NCBI GenBank assembly: GCA_017631215.1
Contig: JAGBTR010000272.1
Span: 1-6,895, forward strand
DNA length: 6,895 bases
Reading direction: 5' to 3'
Source of the DNA: Clostridia bacterium
Lineage (GTDB): Bacteria; Bacillota; Clostridia; Oscillospirales; CAG-272
A model generated the notes under the pieces. It did not search any database and had not been told where the DNA came from. It saw only the letters and a program-made list of their open reading frames with translations. How positions within the stretch are numbered: position 1 is the first letter of the stretch; every line of letters begins with the position of its first letter. This document shows positions 1 through 6,895 of this stretch, piece after piece. A program made the translations under genes and the position numbers.

Positions 1-156
1 CGCGCATCGGCTGCAGCCAATGGGCTGCTCCAGATCGGAGATCACGATCTCCGCATCCCCAAAGAGGCGATATTTTCCCGCATCAAGCAGGCGGACGTAT
101 CGTCCGTTTTTGAACAAAAAGCCCTTCTGTGTTTCGTTAATGATAACCTTTTTCAT
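1..156 (-). CDS. Slipin / SPFH (band 7) family protein, N-terminal fragment, runs off the window
   Basis: Only the first 52 residues are present, beginning MKKVIINETQKGFLFKNGRY. The pattern of a short beta strand, then GFLFKNGRYVRLLDAGKYRLFGDAEI and an 'EQP' turn matches my memory of the N-terminus of slipin-type SPFH proteins, membrane-associated scaffold proteins related to stomatin. The SPFH domain itself would lie beyond the window. The ATG at 156 is supported by a strong Shine-Dalgarno AAAGGAGG (complement of 167-174) ten bases upstream. The gene follows an unusually long structured leader (157 to about 600) and lies downstream of two WYL regulators. Slipins of this short type are known from bacterial RNA-repair clusters with RtcB ligase and the Ro60 homologue Rsr, which is why the leader is of interest. 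The family call is fairly good. The role is inferred from context, and no catalytic residues can be judged from the fragment. Confidence 0.7.
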   Translation of the reverse strand, partial: MKKVIINETQKGFLFKNGRYVRLLDAGKYRLFGDAEIVISDLEQPIGCSRCA

Positions 157-203
157 TGTATGTTTTCCTCCTTTAAGGTAATGATGTCGTTCCGCGACGG
201 TTC

Positions 204-315
204 TGCAAAAGCAGCGGCTGATGGCTTCAGTGCCTCCTGCGCGGCGCGGAAGGATGTCCTTTGGCACCGCTGGGGAATACACGGTATCCGCCCTCAGGCA
301 GGGCTTGCTTTTGCA
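204..315 (-). ncRNA. Second structured RNA domain in the slipin leader, closed by a perfect 10-bp helix
   Basis: On the minus strand TGCAAAAGCA (complement of 306-315) pairs perfectly with TGCTTTTGCA (complement of 204-213), enclosing 92 nt. Inside, in transcript order, are a hairpin GCCC/GGGC with a 7-nt loop at 290-304, an immediately adjacent hairpin at 274-289 (six pairs with one bulged base), and a helix pairing 263-267 with 230-234 (GTGCC/GGCAC, extendable by a wobble and one more pair). That helix encloses a small AAGGA/TCCTT hairpin at 250-261. The nested, non-conflicting helices suggest selection for structure rather than chance. I do not recognise the family. It could be a second Y RNA-like molecule, a cis-regulatory element for slipin, or a coincidence of GC-rich sequence. 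Confidence 0.3.
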
Positions 316-404
316 TTGCTCCGACAAGCGGGCGGGCCCGTCTGTCCTTGCTGAACAGTCACGGTCGTTAGGCTTGAAAAAACCTTCTTTTTTTCGAACG
401 GAAA

Positions 405-573
405 CGTCCGGTTCTAAGAGTCCCGAAGGACAACACCGATCCACCGGCGATACGCCTTTCGGCGCACGGCGGGATTCGAACCCGCGAATAGAGAGCTTTA
501 CAGGCTCAAGACGCAATCATTCTTCTGGCATACACGTTGGAATCTCCTTGTGCACCGCGGTGAAGGATGGACG
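405..573 (-). ncRNA. tRNA-like structured RNA, candidate bacterial Y RNA (YrlA-like)
   Basis: Minus-strand structure: a perfect T-arm GCGGG-TTCGAAT-CCCGC (469-485) with the hallmark T-loop. Seven nucleotides before it is a GAGC/GCTC hairpin (493-507) whose 7-nt loop CTGTAAA has the T33 and purine-37 pattern of an anticodon loop (apparent anticodon GTA). Both sit inside an 8-bp acceptor-like helix, CGGTGCAC (550-557) with GTGCGCCG (460-467). That helix continues without a gap on the 5' side into ATCC-[TTC bulge]-ACCG (558-568), pairing with CGGTGGAT (439-446), and then CGTCC (569-573) pairing with GGACG (405-409). A UUCG-capped hairpin lies at 420-431. It is not a functional tRNA: the space for the D-arm is 42 nt, no D-arm is seen, and the helix continues past the acceptor end. 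A tRNA mimic on a bulged stem is the architecture of bacterial Y RNAs, which bind Rsr (Ro60). A decayed tRNA is the main alternative. Confidence 0.45.
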
Positions 574-583
574 CAAACACTCG

Positions 584-602
584 CTTGAAGTAATCTTGCA
601 AG
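584..602. promoter_or_regulatory. Possible regulator site: CTTGAAG and CTTGCAAG one helical turn apart at the predicted start site
   Basis: Two similar elements, CTTGAAG (584-590) and the palindrome CTTGCAAG (595-602), start 11 bp apart and straddle the predicted transcription start of the leader RNA. The spacing of about one helical turn is what a dimeric regulator would need, and two WYL regulators are encoded immediately upstream. This is pattern-based only; short repeats of this size can arise by chance. Confidence 0.2.
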
Positions 603-605
603 CAT

Positions 606-634
606 ATTTTACCAACATCTTCGCCGTTTTTCAC
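606..634 (-). promoter_or_regulatory. Predicted sigma-A type promoter for the leader RNA and slipin
   Basis: On the minus strand the -10 is TAAAAT (606-611), preceded by TG one base away (extended -10, TGG). A 17-nt spacer leads to the -35-like GTGAAA (629-634, four of six matches to TTGACA). Transcription would start near 599, giving a leader of about 440 nt. The promoter sits between the terminator of the WYL operon and the structured leader, which fits independent expression. Phased A-tracts lie just upstream and could add UP-element or bending effects. Confidence 0.5.
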
Positions 635-663
635 GGAAAAAAAGCTGCGAAAAGCCTCAAAAA

Positions 664-696
664 CGCGTTTTTTTCGGTTTTTTTCGGTTTTTTCGA
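664..696. repeat. Phased A-tract repeat, T6-7CGG units with 10-bp period
   Basis: Three T-runs (7, 7 and 6 bases) start at exactly 668, 678 and 688, separated by CGG, so as A-tracts they recur every 10 bp. A further run of six on the opposite strand begins at 698, inside the terminator tail. A-tracts in phase with the helix bend DNA. They lie about 35-60 bp upstream of the predicted -35 of the leader RNA promoter. Confidence 0.6.
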
Positions 697-697
697 C

Positions 698-731
698 AAA
701 AAAGGACAGAGATCTCTTGTCTCTGTCCTTT
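698..731 (-). terminator. Intrinsic terminator of the WYL regulator operon
   Basis: A perfect 12-bp stem pairs AAAGGACAGAGA (701-712) with its complement at 720-731 around a 7-nt loop. On the minus strand it is followed by six T residues (complement of 698-703). It begins about 30 bases after the TAG stop of the second WYL gene, so it should end the regulator transcript before the leader RNA promoter. Confidence 0.85.
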
Positions 732-761: not shown

Positions 762-1673
762 CTATCGCAGCGCGCGTTTTCTCTGCGCGATCAGCTTATC
801 GCACACAGCGCGGCGAAGCGAGGCAGACTCCAGCACCTCGACCATCGGGCCGAAGGATAGCACGCGGATCACCAGCTCGGGCTCATCGTCGTGCGCGTAT
901 TTGATCTGCAACAGATAGGTATTTTCGTCCAGCCGCTCTGCCTGCTTCTCAAAATGCGCGAAATGGAGCATCACGCGCTCCAGCGCATTTCGCTCGTCGA
1001 CCACCCGCAGTGTGGCCGTATCGTACTGTGTTTCCCGCTCCTCGCCCACCAGTATTTTCTCGCCCAGATAATGCGTGCAGCGTTGGATCTTGGCCAGATT
1101 GACCGTCGCCACCGAGCGCCAGCCGGCGGTCACAACGCGGAATTTATCATCCTTTTCCGAATACTCCAGCCTCACGGGGCGGCATCGGACAAACATCGTA
1201 TTTCCCTTGCGGTTGACCATTTCAAATTTGATCTGCGAGTGCCGCTTGATCGCGGTCAGGATGACGCGGAATTGCCGAATATACTCCTCATCCTCAAACG
1301 GATCGCCGTCGCTGTATTGGTCGTAGACGTAATAATCCTCCGGCGTGAACAGCGGATCGACGCCGTCAAGCCCCGTCAGCGACACGCCGAACAGCTTGAT
1401 GCGGGGATCGAGCGAGATGGCCTTGAGCCATTGCTTTTGCAGTGTCGTCAGCGGCATCGTCGGACGGTGCGTCAGTGCCGTCGTCATATCCGCATGCACG
1501 AGCTGCCATTTTTCGCTTTTCAGCGAGGGCAAAATGGTCAGCGCACTCTCACCGAAGGCTCGCTCGGTAACGATGCTTTGCAGCTCGCGCTCGGAATGCT
1601 CACCGTCGAGAATGCGAGCAATGATGGCCGCGACGGTATTATAGTACGCAGAATACAGCTCACTGAATATCAT
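762..1673 (-). CDS. WYL-domain regulatory protein, second of the pair, without a clear DNA-binding domain
   Basis: A 303-residue protein. Residues about 75-96 (LTTLQKQWLKAISLDPRIKLF) are the linker typical of this WYL subfamily. The WYL beta-barrel spans roughly 135-200 (QIKFEMVNRKG, FRVVTAGWRSVATVNLAKI), followed by a C-terminal extension (WCX-like) around 215-295 with VLSFGPMVEVLES. WYL domains are known sensors of nucleic acid or nucleotide ligands in bacterial regulators. No convincing winged helix is visible in the first 75 residues, unlike the upstream partner, which suggests the two act as a hetero-complex in the style of PafB/PafC. The ATG overlaps the partner's TGA (ATGA, 1670-1673) and has a strong AGGAGGTGG site inside the partner gene, so translation is probably coupled. 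The stop is TAG and the gene ends just before an intrinsic terminator. Family call firm; ligand and target unknown. Confidence 0.85.
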   Translation of the reverse strand: MIFSELYSAYYNTVAAIIARILDGEHSERELQSIVTERAFGESALTILPSLKSEKWQLVHADMTTALTHRPTMPLTTLQKQWLKAISLDPRIKLFGVSLTGLDGVDPLFTPEDYYVYDQYSDGDPFEDEEYIRQFRVILTAIKRHSQIKFEMVNRKGNTMFVRCRPVRLEYSEKDDKFRVVTAGWRSVATVNLAKIQRCTHYLGEKILVGEERETQYDTATLRVVDERNALERVMLHFAHFEKQAERLDENTYLLQIKYAHDDEPELVIRVLSFGPMVEVLESASLRRAVCDKLIAQRKRALR

Positions 1674-2929
1674 CGCTCCACCTCCTCGTCAATGCCATAC
1701 ATCCGATACATCTGCGCCAGATCGCGCTTGAAGCGACGCTCGATCTCGCGATTCGACCAATGCATCTCAACGATACGGCAGATGAACGTCCTCACCCACG
1801 GGATCAGCTCGCTCGAGTCGTAAACGTCCGCCGAAAAGCGGTAGGTATGCTCGTCCAGCCGCTCTACCCTTCCGATGCGCTTCTCTCTTTCCAGACGCCG
1901 AACGATATAATCCTCATAGTCCTCGACCTTGACCGTAAAATCCACGTGCTCAAGGTTTGGCTCGCGCCAGCCGTTGCGCGTAATGCCGACGCCCCACATA
2001 TACTTTTGCATACGGTCAAGCTCCGCGCGAAGCTCTTCAAAGCGGGGCGTGACCTCCTCGAGCGTCACGTCGGAAAGATAATCCACGCGATAGGACTGAA
2101 AATGATTGTATTCCGGCAAATACGCGATCAAATGCTGTCTGCCGCTCTGCACGCTGATCAAAACGCGCAGCGGAATGAGGCGGTGTCGCTGCGGCGTCTC
2201 CCGTCGGCGGCTGACGTTGGTGGCGGTCACGACGCGCATCTCGCGCATCGCACGAAACAGCGCTGCCAGCACGCCGCTGTCGATCGCCCCCGTCATATAG
2301 TGATGCTTAAAGGTAAAGACGTCGCTGCTCTTCTCCTGCTTATCCAGTATGTAGGAGCCGATCACACCGCAGGGCGCGGCCTCCGAAAAATAGTGCAGAA
2401 CCTCGTCAAGCGCCAAAAGATCGGGGCTTTCGGCTCGGCGATAGTACATTTTCCGCCCGTCCCGCTCTGCCTCAAGGATACCTGCCTCGCAGTATTCCTT
2501 CAGCTTTTTTCGCACGGTGGATTCATCGAACATCATCGGTCCCTCAAAGCCTGCCAGATACCTCTCATCGATTTCTTGAACAAGCTCCGCAACCGTTCGA
2601 CGCACCGACGGCTCGTGGAGGATATCGAAGAGGATAAAATGCAGCGTCACGTCACCGTCGGTAAAGCTCTTGGTCTTCCACGCCTTGAAAAACGGGTTGT
2701 GACCGACGGCGCGGCTGTCGATGGAAATGAACACGTTCTTGCCCTCGGCCGTACGGACAAAGCGCATATGATCCCCCAGCCAGCTTTCCATACGCCGCCG
2801 CTCGTCGTCGTATGAGCGCGCGCTTTTCTTGTCGTAATCCTCGCGACTCTTAAAGCCATACACGTAAAACTCGCGCATATAAGCGCGGATACGCTCAAAA
2901 TTCTTGACCAGCTCACTGTAATTGGACAT
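1670..2929 (-). CDS. WYL-domain transcriptional regulator with winged helix, first of the pair
   Basis: With the ATG at 2929 the protein is 419 residues. A GTG at 2938 would add three; I prefer the ATG because the predicted transcription start near 2949 leaves a sensible short leader and AAGGG lies about 11 bases upstream. Roughly residues 97-165 form a winged helix (TVAELVQEIDERY, DESTVRKKLKEYCEAGILEAE, then a basic MYYRR wing). The WYL domain follows at about 220-292, with a clear core ISVQSGRQHLIAYLPEYNHFQSYRVDYLSDV. A C-terminal alpha/beta extension covers about 320-415. Such proteins are transcription factors whose WYL domain senses a nucleic acid or nucleotide-like ligand. It is co-transcribed with the second WYL gene through a 4-base overlap. 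The tandem arrangement and adjacent structured RNA/slipin unit suggest that it controls that unit, but this is inference. Confidence 0.88.
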   Translation of the reverse strand: MSNYSELVKNFERIRAYMREFYVYGFKSREDYDKKSARSYDDERRRMESWLGDHMRFVRTAEGKNVFISIDSRAVGHNPFFKAWKTKSFTDGDVTLHFILFDILHEPSVRRTVAELVQEIDERYLAGFEGPMMFDESTVRKKLKEYCEAGILEAERDGRKMYYRRAESPDLLALDEVLHYFSEAAPCGVIGSYILDKQEKSSDVFTFKHHYMTGAIDSGVLAALFRAMREMRVVTATNVSRRRETPQRHRLIPLRVLISVQSGRQHLIAYLPEYNHFQSYRVDYLSDVTLEEVTPRFEELRAELDRMQKYMWGVGITRNGWREPNLEHVDFTVKVEDYEDYIVRRLEREKRIGRVERLDEHTYRFSADVYDSSELIPWVRTFICRIVEMHWSNREIERRFKRDLAQMYRMYGIDEEVER

Positions 2930-2955
2930 ATGCCTCACCGTCCCTTCTTTTCTTT

Positions 2956-3043: not shown

Positions 3044-5314
3044 TTACATCTGCTTGGGCTTTTTGATGCGGTTGAGCTTTTTGTTCATCTTAAGCAGCTC
3101 TTCCTTGGTGAAGCTGATGTTCAGCATACCCATCATGCTCGTCAGACGAAGCACGGTGAAGCCGCCCATCATTGCCATCAGACCGCCGTCTGCCTTGAGG
3201 TCGACCTCAAAGCCGCCGCCCTTCTTCTCTCCCTTGGCCTTGCCCTTCTTGTTGGCATCCATCTTCTTTTTGATCTTGAGACCAACACCGATGAACCACA
3301 GCTTGCCTCTCTTGGACTTCATAATATCCGCGATCTTGTCGTTGAGCGAGTATCTGCCCTCAACCTCGACGACGTCGAACCAGTTCAGCACCGCGCCAAC
3401 CTCGCGCAACACGTAGTCCATATTCATCTCGTCGACGCGGCGGATCTTGCCCTCGTCACTAAGCTCACCCGCCTTGGCAACGATGGTGCTCTCGCCCTCG
3501 TTCTTGACGTCGAAGTAGAAGAAATGATCCTCTGCCGTCTTCTTGCCGATGCTCTCGCCGTTGACGAACAGCTCGACCTCGGGCAGATTGGAATAGACGG
3601 TCACGCGGGTCACGTCCTCGACGCGGTCGATATATCTCTTACCGCACAGATGCACGAAGGGATCGTCCGACAGCCAAGCCTTGTAAGCATAGAAGGCGTC
3701 CTTCTTGTACTTTCTGTCCATAGTGACCAGACCCTTGTGGTTCTGACCGTTCTCGCCGCCCTCGGCACGTGCATCCGCACCGAAGTCGAACATATTCCAG
3801 ACGTGCGTCGCCCAGATATACTTGCGGCTGAAGAGCTGCTTGATCAGCTCCTCGTGGTAGTACGCCTGGTACTCCTCGCTGTAATCGCCCTGCTTGGGGT
3901 CACTGGTGTGCCAGTTGAGCGCCTCGCAGCCGTACTCGCTGATACCGATCGGAATGGTGGGGTGCGTCTCGTGGAACTTATCAAACCAAGGGCCGTTCAT
4001 GCTCGTGTCGCCGCCGTACCAGCCGAAATAGTGGTTGTAGGAAACGACGTCGGGAATGAGCAGATAGGGATCGTCCATCTTGCACATCGAAACGGCGGCG
4101 ATGGTGGTCAGTCTCGTCTTGTCCATCTCGTGGACGAGATCGTTGAGGATGCGGTGGTTCTCGAGCAGATCCTCGTCCGAGCCGCCGATCGAGATCTCGT
4201 TGGAAAGACCCCAGACGACGATGGATGCGTGGTTGTAGTTCTGCGTGACCAGCTCCTTCATCTGTGAGATGGTGTTCTCACGACCGCCGGGCATATGCTT
4301 GGAGATATAGGGGATCTCCGCCCAGATGACCAGACCCTTCTCATCGCACAGATCGTAGAAATACTGATCGTGCTGATAGTGCGCAAGACGAATGGTCGTC
4401 GCACCGACCTCCATGATCAGGTCGATATCCTCGGCGTGATGCTCGGGCAGCAGCGCGTTGCCGATGCCGAGTCTGTCCTGATGGCGCGAAACGCCGCGCA
4501 GCGGATACTCCTCGCCGTTCAGAATAAAGCCGTTGTCGGGATCGATGCGGTAGGAGCGGCAGCCGAAGCGGTTGCACACGTTGTCAAGAACGGTCTCGCC
4601 CTCGACGATCTCGACCTCACAGCAATAGAGGTAGGGATCGCGGCGACCGTGCCACAGATGCACGTCCTTGATCTCGAAGGTCACCTTCGAATCGGTCGAC
4701 TCGATCTTCTGCAGCTCGTTCTCGTCCTTGTCATAGATGGCATAGACCAGCTTCTGACCGTCCGAAAGGGGCGTGGTATAGACCTCGACCTCGACGCGGG
4801 CATCCTTGCCGTCAACGGTGGGCGTGATCTTGAGCCCCGAGCCGCCGTAGTAGTCCAGATCGAAATGCGTCTTGTTGACCGCGATCAGATTGACGTCGCG
4901 GTACAGACCGCCGTAGAAGGTAAAGTCTGCCATCTGGGGATAGACCGTATCGTTTTGCGTGTTGTCCACGAGGATGGCGACCTCGGTCGCATCGGTCAGA
5001 TGCGCGGTCAGATCGACTCTCCAGGTGGAATAGCCGCCGTCGTGGTGCGCCAGCTTTTCACCGCCGACGTACACGTCAGCCGACGAGTTGGCACCGCGGA
5101 TCTCGAGATAGTAGCAATCCGCCTCGGGCAGATCTGCCTTGCGAAGCGTCTTCGCGTACAGACAAGTGCCGCGGAAATAGTCGTTGCCGCCGTCCTGACC
5201 GTCGGTTGCGTTCCAGGTGTGGGGCAGGCAGACCGTCTCGCCCTCGCGCAACGCGATATCGGTCGTGTCCTTGATAAAGAGCCAGTCCTTGTTCAGATTG
5301 ATGATGTTTCTCAC
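3044..5314 (-). CDS. Glycoside hydrolase family 2 enzyme, beta-galactosidase-like, cytoplasmic
   Basis: A 756-residue retaining glycosidase expected to cleave terminal beta-linked sugars, probably beta-galactosides. Order: N-terminal jelly-roll sugar-binding domain (about 1-150, FYGGLYRDVNLI), immunoglobulin-like domain (about 155-255), catalytic TIM barrel (about 257-550), a beta-sandwich (about 555-620) and a C-terminal Lys/Met-rich domain (about 630-756). Visible signatures are RGVSRHQD (273-280), RLAHYQHDQ (309-317), acid/base Glu373 in GLSNE, nucleophile Glu460 in GISEYG, and the substrate-wall HVWNMFDFG (504-512). There is no signal peptide, so it acts on imported substrate. The start is GTG at 5314: AAAGGAG (complement of 5323-5329) lies eight bases upstream, an in-frame TAA closes the frame just above, and no ATG fits. 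It lies downstream of a GPH sugar porter but behind a terminator and its own promoter. Exact substrate cannot be told from sequence. Confidence 0.93.
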   Translation of the reverse strand: MRNIINLNKDWLFIKDTTDIALREGETVCLPHTWNATDGQDGGNDYFRGTCLYAKTLRKADLPEADCYYLEIRGANSSADVYVGGEKLAHHDGGYSTWRVDLTAHLTDATEVAILVDNTQNDTVYPQMADFTFYGGLYRDVNLIAVNKTHFDLDYYGGSGLKITPTVDGKDARVEVEVYTTPLSDGQKLVYAIYDKDENELQKIESTDSKVTFEIKDVHLWHGRRDPYLYCCEVEIVEGETVLDNVCNRFGCRSYRIDPDNGFILNGEEYPLRGVSRHQDRLGIGNALLPEHHAEDIDLIMEVGATTIRLAHYQHDQYFYDLCDEKGLVIWAEIPYISKHMPGGRENTISQMKELVTQNYNHASIVVWGLSNEISIGGSDEDLLENHRILNDLVHEMDKTRLTTIAAVSMCKMDDPYLLIPDVVSYNHYFGWYGGDTSMNGPWFDKFHETHPTIPIGISEYGCEALNWHTSDPKQGDYSEEYQAYYHEELIKQLFSRKYIWATHVWNMFDFGADARAEGGENGQNHKGLVTMDRKYKKDAFYAYKAWLSDDPFVHLCGKRYIDRVEDVTRVTVYSNLPEVELFVNGESIGKKTAEDHFFYFDVKNEGESTIVAKAGELSDEGKIRRVDEMNMDYVLREVGAVLNWFDVVEVEGRYSLNDKIADIMKSKRGKLWFIGVGLKIKKKMDANKKGKAKGEKKGGGFEVDLKADGGLMAMMGGFTVLRLTSMMGMLNISFTKEELLKMNKKLNRIKKPKQM

Positions 5315-5322
5315 GTTCGTTT

Positions 5323-5329
5323 CTCCTTT
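5323..5329 (-). promoter_or_regulatory. Ribosome binding site that fixes the GTG start of the GH2 gene
   Basis: AAAGGAG on the minus strand lies eight bases before GTG at 5314. Because the frame upstream is closed by TAA and the next in-frame ATG is around codon 128, this site decides the start. Confidence 0.8.
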
Positions 5330-5350
5330 AATTAAGCGATCGGATGTCGA

Positions 5351-5369
5351 CGGTACTATGATAGCACCG
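5351..5369. promoter_or_regulatory. Operator-like inverted repeat over the -10 of the GH2 promoter
   Basis: A 19-bp odd-centred inverted repeat: CGGTACTAT (5351-5359), centre G, ATAGCACCG (5361-5369), with eight of nine positions complementary. It covers the minus-strand -10 TATCAT (5358-5363), which also has an extended TG motif (TGC). A repressor bound here would occlude RNA polymerase, as expected for sugar-induced control of a catabolic gene. No regulator for it is recognisable in the window. The -35 for this -10 is poor; an alternative TTGAAA with CATATT further upstream is possible. Confidence 0.5.
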
Positions 5370-5398
5370 AAATATGAATGGCATATGAAGATTTTTTC

Positions 5399-5436
5399 AA
5401 AAGATGGCGCCCGACGGATTGGGGTCGGACGCCATC
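5399..5436 (-). terminator. Intrinsic terminator after the full-length sugar porter frame
   Basis: A 13-bp stem with one G-U wobble pairs 5403-5415 with 5424-5436 around an 8-nt loop, followed on the minus strand by four T residues. It begins 13 bases after the TGA at 5450-5452, which is the stop reached if the internal TAG at 5624 is ignored. This spacing indicates that the original gene ended at the TGA. Confidence 0.75.
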
Positions 5437-5449
5437 GAAGGGTCAGGGA

Positions 5450-5623
5450 TCAAACAAGATTGTCATTGTCCTCTGCCGTGGTGACCACGAAGAGGTCGTC
5501 CGCCTCCACGTCGCGGCCAAGCGCGGAATTCATCTCGGACAGCGTCTTCTTGTCCAGATTGTAGACCACGGCAAGACCGATGAACTGCACGACGGCGCTG
5601 AACAGATACAGCGCGGCGACCAG
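5450..5623 (-). pseudogene. In-frame continuation of the sugar porter beyond an internal TAG (last helix and tail)
   Basis: Directly after the TAG the same frame stays open for 57 codons to a TGA at 5450-5452. It encodes a hydrophobic segment LVAALYLFSAVVQFIGLAVV, the usual last membrane helix of GPH transporters, followed by YNLDKKTLSEMNSALGR, the family's typical cytoplasmic tail, and an acidic end (EDNDNLV). There is no start codon or ribosome binding site suggesting independent translation. The tail is therefore either lost through a nonsense change, made by readthrough of the TAG, or split by a sequencing error. TAG is used as an ordinary stop by the WYL gene ending at 762, so general recoding of TAG is unlikely. 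Confidence 0.75.
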
Positions 5624-6895
5624 CTAGCACATATTCTTCGCCGTTTCGGGCGTCTGGAGGATGGTTCCCAGCTCTGCCTTGTAACCGAGCCAGCCCATCA
5701 TCAGCAGCACCACCGAGGGGCCGATGCCCTGCGCCAGCTTACGGAAGAAGGAGTGCAGCGAATAGACCGTACCCTCCTCGCGCGTGCCGTACTTCCACTC
5801 GTTGTAGTCGATGGCATCGCCCATCATTGCCCACGACACGCAGGTGTAAACACCCATACCGATGCCGAAGACGACCAGACCCAGCAGATAAACGACCAGC
5901 GCGATCTTCACGTCTGCGATCATCGGGAAGATGAGCATGATCACGCCGCCGACCAGCGAGACGACGGTACCGAACACAGAGGATTCCTTCTTACCGTACT
6001 TTTTGACGATCTTGGTAATGAAGGGCATAAACAGGAACATCGGAAGGAAGCCGATCATCTGCACAAGACCCGACAGCGAAGCCATATTGAAATAGGTGGC
6101 AAACATAACGGTGTTGGCAGTAGAGGCGGCGTTCATACCGAGGAACATACCCATTGCGGCCAGCGTGGCGCCAACAGCGGGGCGGTTCTTCATAAACTTA
6201 CCAAATGCCTTGAAGACGTTGAACTTTTCGGTGTTCTCGTTCGTCTTGACGGAATTCTCATCCACGCGGAGCGTGATGTTCTTGATCATAAACATAAAGG
6301 CGACAAAGCCGATCACACCCATCACGAGAGCGGCAAAGAAGGCGCGCTCGCCGAGCAGGATCTCGACCTGGCTACCCGTCAGCGGGTTGAGGAACTTCTT
6401 ACCGATCTGGTAAGCCTGGCCCGTCTTGGGGTTGGTGTGGAGGTACTGAAGGAAGACCTCCTTGGACTCCTCGGGAATGTAGATCTTATCGAGGAAGTCC
6501 GTGTTGCCCGTATAGGTCACCTTCTCCCAGATCAGCATCGGGAGGATGACCATCGGCAGAATGTTACCGATCATCGAGCCGATGGAGCGCCAGGTGGAGA
6601 GCTGTGCGCGCTCACCCACATCCTCGGTGATCAGCGAGAGCATCGAGCCGTAAGGAACGTTGGCAATGGTGTAGAAGGCATCCCAGACGATATAGCCCAG
6701 AACGAACAGCACCGCCTTCACGACGACGGGTGCCTTGGGGAACGGCAAAAAGACCGCTGCACCGCCGACCAAAAGGCCGCACGCGCCGATAAAGACGTAG
6801 GTCTTGAACTTGCCCATTTTGTACTTGCGTCTGTCGTTGTCGATCAGCGAGCCGATCATCGGGTCGTTGACGGCATCCCAGATCTGCACGAGCAG
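5624..6895 (-). CDS. GPH-family (MelB-like) sugar:cation symporter, 5' end outside window, interrupted by TAG near its C-terminus
   Basis: The visible 423 codons encode a polytopic membrane protein of the glycoside-pentoside-hexuronide:cation symporter family (MFS fold), importing a sugar with Na+ or H+. Near the visible start is WDAVNDPMIGSLID, matching the MelB helix II cation-site motif with its Asp-xxx-Asp pair (MelB Asp55/Asp59), so about 48 residues are missing upstream. The frame is open at the window edge, and a GTG at 6889 lies inside this motif and is not the start. Other family marks are NVPYGSMLSLITEDVGERAQLSTWRS and, near the end, WKYGTREEGTVYSLHSFFRKLAQGIG. A long insert of about 40 residues (YTGNTDFLDKIYIPEES) sits between helices. 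The frame is cut by TAG at 5624-5626 before the last helix. Followed by the GH2 gene, so it probably supplies that enzyme's substrate. Confidence 0.88.
   Translation of the reverse strand: MLVQIWDAVNDPMIGSLIDNDRRKYKMGKFKTYVFIGACGLLVGGAAVFLPFPKAPVVVKAVLFVLGYIVWDAFYTIANVPYGSMLSLITEDVGERAQLSTWRSIGSMIGNILPMVILPMLIWEKVTYTGNTDFLDKIYIPEESKEVFLQYLHTNPKTGQAYQIGKKFLNPLTGSQVEILLGERAFFAALVMGVIGFVAFMFMIKNITLRVDENSVKTNENTEKFNVFKAFGKFMKNRPAVGATLAAMGMFLGMNAASTANTVMFATYFNMASLSGLVQMIGFLPMFLFMPFITKIVKKYGKKESSVFGTVVSLVGGVIMLIFPMIADVKIALVVYLLGLVVFGIGMGVYTCVSWAMMGDAIDYNEWKYGTREEGTVYSLHSFFRKLAQGIGPSVVLLMMGWLGYKAELGTILQTPETAKNMC

What the first reader, a model, noticed from the sequence alone, without database searches (positions are those of the whole stretch)
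405..573. Candidate tRNA-mimicking Y RNA (YrlA-like) upstream of a slipin gene
The minus strand shows a T-arm with the GTTCGAAT signature, an anticodon-like arm, a 7-nt variable segment and an acceptor-like 8-bp helix. That helix does not end as in a tRNA but continues on its 5' side, without a gap, into an 8-bp stem with a 3-nt bulge. A 42-nt segment takes the place of the D-arm. A tRNA module on a bulged stem is the design of bacterial Y RNAs of the YrlA class, partners of Rsr (Ro60). Placement before a slipin and after two WYL regulators fits an RNA-repair/Ro locus. It would be missed by tRNA scanners and by ORF-based annotation.
Basis: partly seen in the sequence, partly recalled or inferred. 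Interest (0 to 1): 0.78.

Follow-up and report, generated by a model that had tools for sequence, protein, structure and literature searches.

The report
Rearranged tRNA mimic beside RNA-repair genes
Next to RNA-repair genes, this gut bacterium carries a conserved element, found in 43 related copies, whose changes fit an RNA that copies a tRNA with its arms in rotated order and its amino-acid end sealed by a loop; it is likely transcribed and predicted to help the neighbouring membrane protein and RNA ligase handle damaged tRNAs.

Summary
Window 431-601 (minus) matches a structured RNA found in 43 loci. Of 80 WYL-WYL loci, the 37 with a slipin gene all have it and the other 43 do not. The operon reads WYL1-WYL2-RNA-slipin, followed by RtcB in 31 of 37. 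A 5' three-way junction is followed by anticodon-like arm, T-arm, acceptor stem closed by a loop, then D-arm: a circularly permuted tRNA. YrlA has the same permuted core, but this RNA is not scored as YrlA, and no TROVE/Rsr was found in 146 genomes. I recall, but could not open, a 2016 survey naming a tRNA-like RNA linked to SPFH/Band-7 repair genes, so I file this as a new variant of a known kind. Sister operons instead carry arrays of 2-9 Y-RNA-like cassettes beside a DUF2828-type protein. Function (scaffold, decoy or cis leader) is inferred; transcription is untested.

The parts
632..651 (-). conserved promoter-proximal element TTCGCAGCTTTTTTTCCGTG, 3' of WYL2; possible regulator (WYL) site
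   Evidence: core TTTTTCCGTG after WYL2 in 74 of 80 loci; binding inferred
606..611 (-). -10-like hexamer TAAAAT with TG before it; predicted start near 599
   Evidence: pattern scan; a TANNMT hexamer lies exactly 20 nt after the core motif at 75 of 79 sites
431..601 (-). structured RNA, the whole element matched by covariance model R1
   Evidence: 175.1 bits; 43 loci
513..599 (-). 5' domain: helix H1 (two segments) enclosing H2 and H3
   Evidence: pair counts
557..584 (-). helix H2 with one bulged base
   Evidence: 94.9% of cells paired, 4 of 6 pairs with changes on both sides
527..556 (-). helix H3 GGTGCAC/GTGTATGCC with inner GGA/TCC
   Evidence: 99.3% and 98.4% paired, 4 of 7 and 3 of 3 pairs with both-sided changes
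493..507 (-). anticodon-like arm, loop CTGTAAA (triplet GUA)
486..492 (-). 7-nt variable segment
   Evidence: sequence
469..485 (-). T-arm
   Evidence: 99.5% paired, 4 of 5 pairs with both-sided changes
450..467 (-). acceptor-like stem closed by a loop (no free 3' end, no CCA)
   Evidence: 97.6% paired, 5 of 6 pairs with both-sided changes
435..448 (-). D-arm-like hairpin with GG in its loop
   Evidence: 94.1% paired, 4 of 4 pairs with both-sided changes; GG in 41 of 43 loops
420..431 (-). small hairpin GTCC-TTCG-GGAC
   Evidence: seen in alignment A2; not counted separately with the right columns
194..362 (-). second structured element, a long hairpin in the slipin leader
   Evidence: RNAalifold on 31 leaders: 47 pairs, 90.9% paired, 41 pairs with both-sided changes; 20 column shuffles gave 0.0 against -46.4 kcal/mol; no letter-shuffle control
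1..156 (-). slipin (SPFH/Band-7), first 52 codons, cut by the contig end
   Evidence: tblastn 75% identity to residues 1-52 of a relative; a slipin matching residues 60 onward, then RtcB, on own contig C113
762..1673 (-). WYL2 regulator
   Evidence: Pfam WCX; PADLOC WYL
1670..2938 (-). WYL1 regulator
   Evidence: Pfam WYL

Best explanation
This is a conserved structured RNA element of a WYL-slipin-RtcB operon whose 3' half fits a circularly permuted tRNA mimic sealed at its acceptor end, and it likely acts as the RNA scaffold that brings tRNA-handling enzymes, RtcB predicted first among them, to the slipin platform. Shown by comparison: the covarying fold, its order (anticodon-like arm, T-arm, capped acceptor, D-arm), its tie to slipin-type operons, and slipin-RtcB adjacency. 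Inferred: transcription from the promoter-like site at about 606 under WYL control; that tRNA-binding proteins bind the mimic as they do YrlA; that it is never charged because it has no free acceptor end; that the 5' junction is the slipin- or RtcB-binding part. The varied anticodon triplets suggest that which tRNA is copied matters, but they do not fix the mechanism.
For: Covariation: an alignment not fitted to the structure (A3, 14 sequences) has 92.6% paired cells and 16 of 43 pairs with both-sided changes, 0 of 500 shuffles; the model-fitted one (A5, 43 sequences) 96.1%, 35 of 43, 218 cells against a shuffled mean of 49.1. D-loop GG in 41 of 43. Genetic tie: 37 of 37 loci with a slipin carry it, and of the other 43 named loci none scores above 35.1 bits; in wider searches all 17 hits of 43 bits or more lie beside a slipin. 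RtcB lies after slipin in 31 of 37, within 100 nt in 27, and in the own genome. YrlA, with the same permuted core, is described as tethering Rsr to PNPase and as a substrate of the tRNA enzymes DusA and TruB (PMC8394870, passages).
Against: No expression data and no protein-RNA contact are shown. No strong terminator follows the RNA: the only minus-strand terminator-like match is the D-arm hairpin itself (449-434, weak tail), so it may be a cis-acting leader. The strict anticodon loop is in only 18 of 43, and 12 of 43 carry a second T-like arm, so many copies are not a whole tRNA. Some pairs fail (D-arm outer pair unpaired in 10 of 43). In 6 of 37 slipin loci no RtcB was found in the DNA held.
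Confidence: 0.45

Rival explanations
1. Decoy or sensor for anticodon nucleases: the RNA offers an anticodon loop on a body that cannot be charged, is cut in place of (or together with) real tRNAs, and RtcB reseals it.
For: Hairpins with loop CTNNNAA occur in 18 of 43 RNAs against a mean of 0.036 (maximum 1) in 500 shuffles of the variable region; triplets vary (GUC 5, GUU 4, GUA 2, GAC 2, five others once each), 11 of 18 being GUN. GUN is the target set of colicin E5 and of queuosine insertion (recalled). RtcB joins the ends such nucleases leave (recalled). Hughes et al. suggest YrlA as a possible competitive inhibitor of an anticodon nuclease (PMC7790460, passage).
Against: 25 of 43 RNAs have no strict anticodon loop. 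YrlA itself was not cut by the nuclease studied there. I did not search the operons for a nuclease gene. Related sequences are not independent.
Confidence: 0.27
2. Cis-acting leader: the two structured elements regulate slipin-rtcB expression, reading tRNA state or a tRNA-binding protein.
For: Both elements lie between the promoter-like site and the slipin start, with no strong terminator between. tRNA-like operators exist in mRNAs, such as thrS (PMC8394870, passage).
Against: The 5' element persists where an ORF of about 230-280 codons lies between it and slipin, as in L044, L046, L051 and L053, which suits a separate RNA better.
Confidence: 0.2
3. A bacterial Y RNA of the YrlA class, partner of Rsr.
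For: Same permuted core as RF02553; RtcB neighbourhood.
Against: No TROVE in 146 genomes; no RF02553 match; the Y stem is not supported.
Confidence: 0.06
4. A decayed tRNA or an integration scar.
For: T-arm and anticodon arm look tRNA-like; ARAGORN calls one relative's RNA (L048) a tRNA-Asp.
Against: 43 divergent copies with compensatory changes; the 23 own tRNA loci match only over a 17-nt T-arm.
Confidence: 0.01

Closest known systems
YrlA, bacterial Y RNA (RF02553)
   Same: Permuted order T-arm, loop-closed acceptor, D-arm; RtcB operon in some bacteria (PMC7790460 and PMC8394870, passages)
   Different: YrlA closes its module with the strands of a basal Rsr-binding stem and is described with D, T and acceptor arms only; here there is a closed anticodon-like arm in 18 of 43, a separate 5' three-way junction, slipin instead of Rsr, and no RF02553 match
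SPFH/Band-7-linked 'novel tRNA-like molecule' of RNA repair systems (Burroughs and Aravind 2016, gkw722; recalled abstract, paper not held)
   Same: Band-7 protein, RNA repair, tRNA-like RNA
tmRNA (RF00023)
   Same: T-arm only (17.7 bits)
   Different: Far below cut-off; acceptor closed by a loop
Permuted tRNA genes (recalled)
   Same: Rotated order of tRNA parts
   Different: Those mature into ordinary tRNAs; here the acceptor is closed within the conserved fold

Membership tests
YrlA / bacterial Y RNA | RF02553 match over the gathering score | tested here: not met
   No match in window 340-700 at E up to 10, nor in the slipin-type RNAs; 0 of 146 genomes over the cut-off, 27 of 146 and 6 of 14 controls below it. 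No control passed the cut-off, so the search is not sensitive
YrlA / bacterial Y RNA | Rsr/TROVE partner gene in the genome | tested here: not met
   0 of 146 genomes, 112 of them at least 90% complete and at most 5% contaminated; the control rang in Deinobacterium. Own genome 73% complete
YrlA / bacterial Y RNA | tRNA-like core in the order T-arm, capped acceptor, D-arm | tested here: met
YrlA / bacterial Y RNA | basal stem of the RNA's two ends enclosing the core | tested here: not met
YrlA / bacterial Y RNA | RtcB RNA-repair operon | tested here: met
SPFH/Band-7-linked tRNA-like RNA (2016 survey, recalled) | adjacent Band-7 gene and RtcB | tested here: met
   Band_7 and RtcB by Pfam in one relative each; adjacency
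SPFH/Band-7-linked tRNA-like RNA (2016 survey, recalled) | homology to the RNA described there | not testable with these tools
   paper not held; no Rfam family over its cut-off on the RNA
tRNA | canonical cloverleaf with free acceptor and CCA | tested here: not met
   ARAGORN 0 genes in the window, though it calls L048's RNA tRNA-Asp; acceptor closed by a 4-13 nt loop
tmRNA | match over the gathering score | tested here: not met
   17.7 bits of 47 needed; 16.2-22 bits in relatives' RNAs

The most novel reading that the evidence does not exclude
A family of un-chargeable, circularly permuted tRNA baits with exchangeable anticodon loops, each shipped with its own ligase (RtcB) and membrane scaffold (slipin): bacteria swap the bait triplet to match the anticodon nucleases they meet, while sister operons do the same with arrays of Y-RNA-like cassettes on a Ro-like DUF2828 protein.
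Probability: 0.2. Interest if true: 0.9.

Novelty: new variant of a known kind. Interest (0 to 1): 0.7.

Why it matters
Why RNA-repair operons carry tRNA-like RNAs is an open question. Here one promoter context precedes two alternative RNA-protein kits: a permuted tRNA mimic with slipin (37 of 37 slipin loci) or Y-like cassettes with a DUF2828-type protein (27 of 27 such loci), usually with RtcB. That clean swap makes 'the RNA is the scaffold partner of the protein' directly testable, and the varied anticodon triplets make a bait hypothesis testable in vitro.

Tried and rejected
A pairing of CAC(T/C)G with C(A/G)GTG after the acceptor, which I first saw by eye, was dropped because helix H2 explains the same 5' letters with covariation; I did not count it separately. 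ARAGORN with a 50% threshold gave only noise. DNA search hit L007 (42 nt; the ORFs around it look like uvrB and radC by eye) has none of the operon's genes. RF02553 matches of 27-37 bits in 27 of 146 relatives: the one such match I aligned, in L045, spans two tandem tRNA-like genes; the others were not checked. A FuFi-1 match (32.5 bits, cut-off 59.6) at L021:1422-1669 overlaps the end of WYL2 and the leader; it did not recur in seven further loci. A PDB profile search with the DUF2828-type protein found nothing, so its likeness to Ro60 stays a recollection. L052 (35.1 bits) has cassettes and no slipin hit and was not pursued. Spacings printed were wrong for motifs near the start of the stretch; one search replaces them.

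Rows dropped: A3 used 14 of the 38 slipin-type RNAs then listed (37 named loci and the window); A5 used the 43 matches with E up to 1e-12 from 43 sources chosen; the second element used 31 of 38 leaders, those under 420 nt. Of the order's hits only the 30 places that were fetched as loci were examined for neighbours. The script failed on L002 (a coordinate carried over); the same record was read as L057. L057, L077 and L091 are the same records as L002, L006 and L004.

Full report
What was checked. The window is the whole of contig C293 of a 73%-complete assembly. On the minus strand it holds WYL1, WYL2, a 605-nt gap, and the first 52 codons of a slipin. In the window no tRNA program or Rfam family claims them, apart from the bare T-arm as tmRNA. 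Single-sequence folding is unremarkable, so the case rests on comparison.

Relatives. A DNA search of 146 genomes matched in 7, own included; in five of the six others (L002-L006) the match lies between WYL2 and slipin, in the sixth (L007) it does not. Of the 80, 37 have a slipin hit, and all 37 have a T-arm element 138-224 nt after a conserved TTTTTCCGTG motif. RtcB lies after slipin in 31 of 37, within 100 nt in 27; in the other six no RtcB was found in the DNA held. In the own genome, contig C113 begins inside a slipin (matching residues 60 onward) and continues into RtcB, so the operon very likely runs across a contig break; the two contig ends do not overlap.

Fold. From 14 copies I drew nine helices and built model R1. 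On that plain MAFFT alignment 92.6% of 594 cells pair, 16 of 43 pairs show changes on both sides, and none of 500 shuffles reaches any measure; sliding the partners drops pairing to 33-47%. The model finds 43 copies at 55 bits or more among 93 sources, with a gap down to 35 bits. On those 43, 35 of 43 pairs have both-sided changes (218 cells, shuffles 49.1 +/- 7.5), though this alignment leans towards the model. Related rows are not independent.

Architecture. The 5' part is a three-way junction (H1, H2, H3). Between H3 and the T-arm lie 32-105 nt, which include the 3' strand of H1 and a variable region; then the T-arm, a stem closed by a loop of 4-13 nt, one or two bases, and a 4-bp hairpin with GG in its loop in 41 of 43. 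In tRNA numbering this reads 27-43, 44-48, 49-65, 66-72, cap, 1-7, 10-25: a tRNA opened between D-arm and anticodon arm and closed at the acceptor. The variable region carries a CTNNNAA seven-base loop on a stem of at least four pairs in 18 of 43 (shuffle mean 0.036, maximum 1 in 500); triplets are GUC 5, GUU 4, GUA 2, GAC 2, and UUC, UAC, UUU, UUA, UGA once each. In 12 of 43 a second T-like arm sits there. ARAGORN calls one relative's RNA (L048) a tRNA-Asp with anticodon GTC.

Promoter. The TTTTTCCGTG motif occurs after WYL2 in 74 of 80 loci, and a TANNMT hexamer follows it at exactly 20 nt in 75 of 79 sites.

Comparison with YrlA. Rfam's consensus printed reads, 5' to 3', outer stem, T-arm, short capped stem, UA, D-arm, outer stem. 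TROVE was found in 0 of 146 genomes, own included.

Distribution. In the order 15 of 394 genomes have a hit of 44 bits or more (own included); in the class 4 of 391 at E up to 1e-10 (own included); in the phylum 2 of 398, both counted before (stricter filters were used). Of the 32 loci fetched, all 17 at 43 bits or more, and two weaker ones (34.9 and 32.5 bits), lie beside a slipin; the other 13 (34.3 bits or less) have none within the DNA held.

The alternative kit. In 27 of 80 loci the interval holds an ORF with the motif GGLGER, mostly of about 490-570 codons (23 of 27; four are shorter pieces). The one tested, L040, has DUF2828 and DUF7788 by Pfam, and ten others are 62-85% identical to it. 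All 27 have cassettes AAAG-RYRY-NN-ACAGCAA ... RYRYCTTG. By the pattern used there are 155 in 34 loci, 2 to 9 per locus; 145 are closed by seven Watson-Crick pairs against a mean of 29 (maximum 42) when strands are swapped between cassettes. Seven loci have cassettes without that ORF in the interval (L036 and L045, where the contig ends, and L108-L112, where RtcB follows). Inserts include tRNA-like sequences in ordinary order (for example L101), and whole predicted tRNA genes also stand between cassettes (for example L034). Three loci carry both kits, each behind its own TTTTTCCGTG motif (L042, L092, L094); none of the 34 slipin-only loci has a cassette. These look like Y-RNA arrays; this is resemblance, not membership.

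Mechanism. Shown: fold, order and gene association. Inferred: transcription, regulation by WYL proteins, protein binding. I favour a scaffold because the RNA follows slipin strictly, while the anticodon loop is optional, and because its nearest structural relative tethers proteins. A bait for anticodon nucleases and a cis leader remain open; the only minus-strand terminator-like match is the D-arm hairpin itself, with a weak tail.

Novelty. No title or abstract start in the capped lists points to this RNA; beyond these I saw passages of PMC7790460, PMC9650030, PMC4012209, PMC7824862 and PMC8394870. From memory, the abstract of Burroughs and Aravind 2016 names SPFH/Band-7 modules with 'a novel tRNA-like molecule'; the paper is not held. 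I therefore treat the association as probably known, and the permuted fold, the varied anticodon triplets, the second leader element and the cassette arrays as the new part.

Noticed in passing
L034, L037, L038, L040, L043, L049, L052, L054, L056, L059 and others, between WYL2 and the DUF2828-type gene: Arrays of 2-9 Y-RNA-like cassettes (AAAGGYRCNNACAGCAA ... GYRCCTTG) with differing, often tRNA-like inserts: 155 in 34 of 80 loci by the pattern used, none in the 34 slipin-only loci.
   Followed up: partly
window 194-362 (-): A second covarying structure, a long hairpin with conserved GGATACCGTG and GTGCCAAA, in the slipin leader; 31 leaders, 41 of 47 pairs with both-sided changes. No Rfam match in the window at E up to 1.
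   Followed up: partly
window 606-651 (-): Conserved TTCGCAGCTTTTTTTCCGTG, its core exactly 20 nt before a -10-like hexamer at 75 of 79 sites; in 74 of 80 loci, and repeated before the second kit in L042, L092 and L094. Candidate WYL operator.
   Followed up: partly
L044, L046, L051, L053, L073, L094, L009:6173-6823: An ORF of about 200-280 codons between the RNA and slipin; the one tested (L094) has no Pfam or NCBIfam match.
   Followed up: no
L037:10028-11161, L041:9913-11190: An AAA ATPase gene (Pfam for L037; L041 has a similar ORF) behind a TTTTTCCGTG motif inside the operon.
   Followed up: no
variable region of 12 RNAs such as L072, L084, L050: A second T-like hairpin GGGG-TTCAACT-CCCC, often preceded by GGCAATCGA...TCGAT: modules appear to be exchanged inside the mimic.
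   Followed up: no
L061, L062, L070, L087, L102: WYL2 followed directly by RtcB (92-131 nt), without either RNA kit by the tests used; L102 may hold one degenerate cassette.
   Followed up: no
L048:1534-1617, 3095-3175, 10267-10350 (-): Three Gut-1 RNA matches (RF01706; 50.6, 44.7 and 38.2 bits, cut-off 50) near the operon in one relative, not in the other six loci scanned.
   Followed up: no
window 3044-6889 (-): A family-2 glycoside hydrolase and an MFS sugar transporter upstream of the regulators; ordinary.
   Followed up: no
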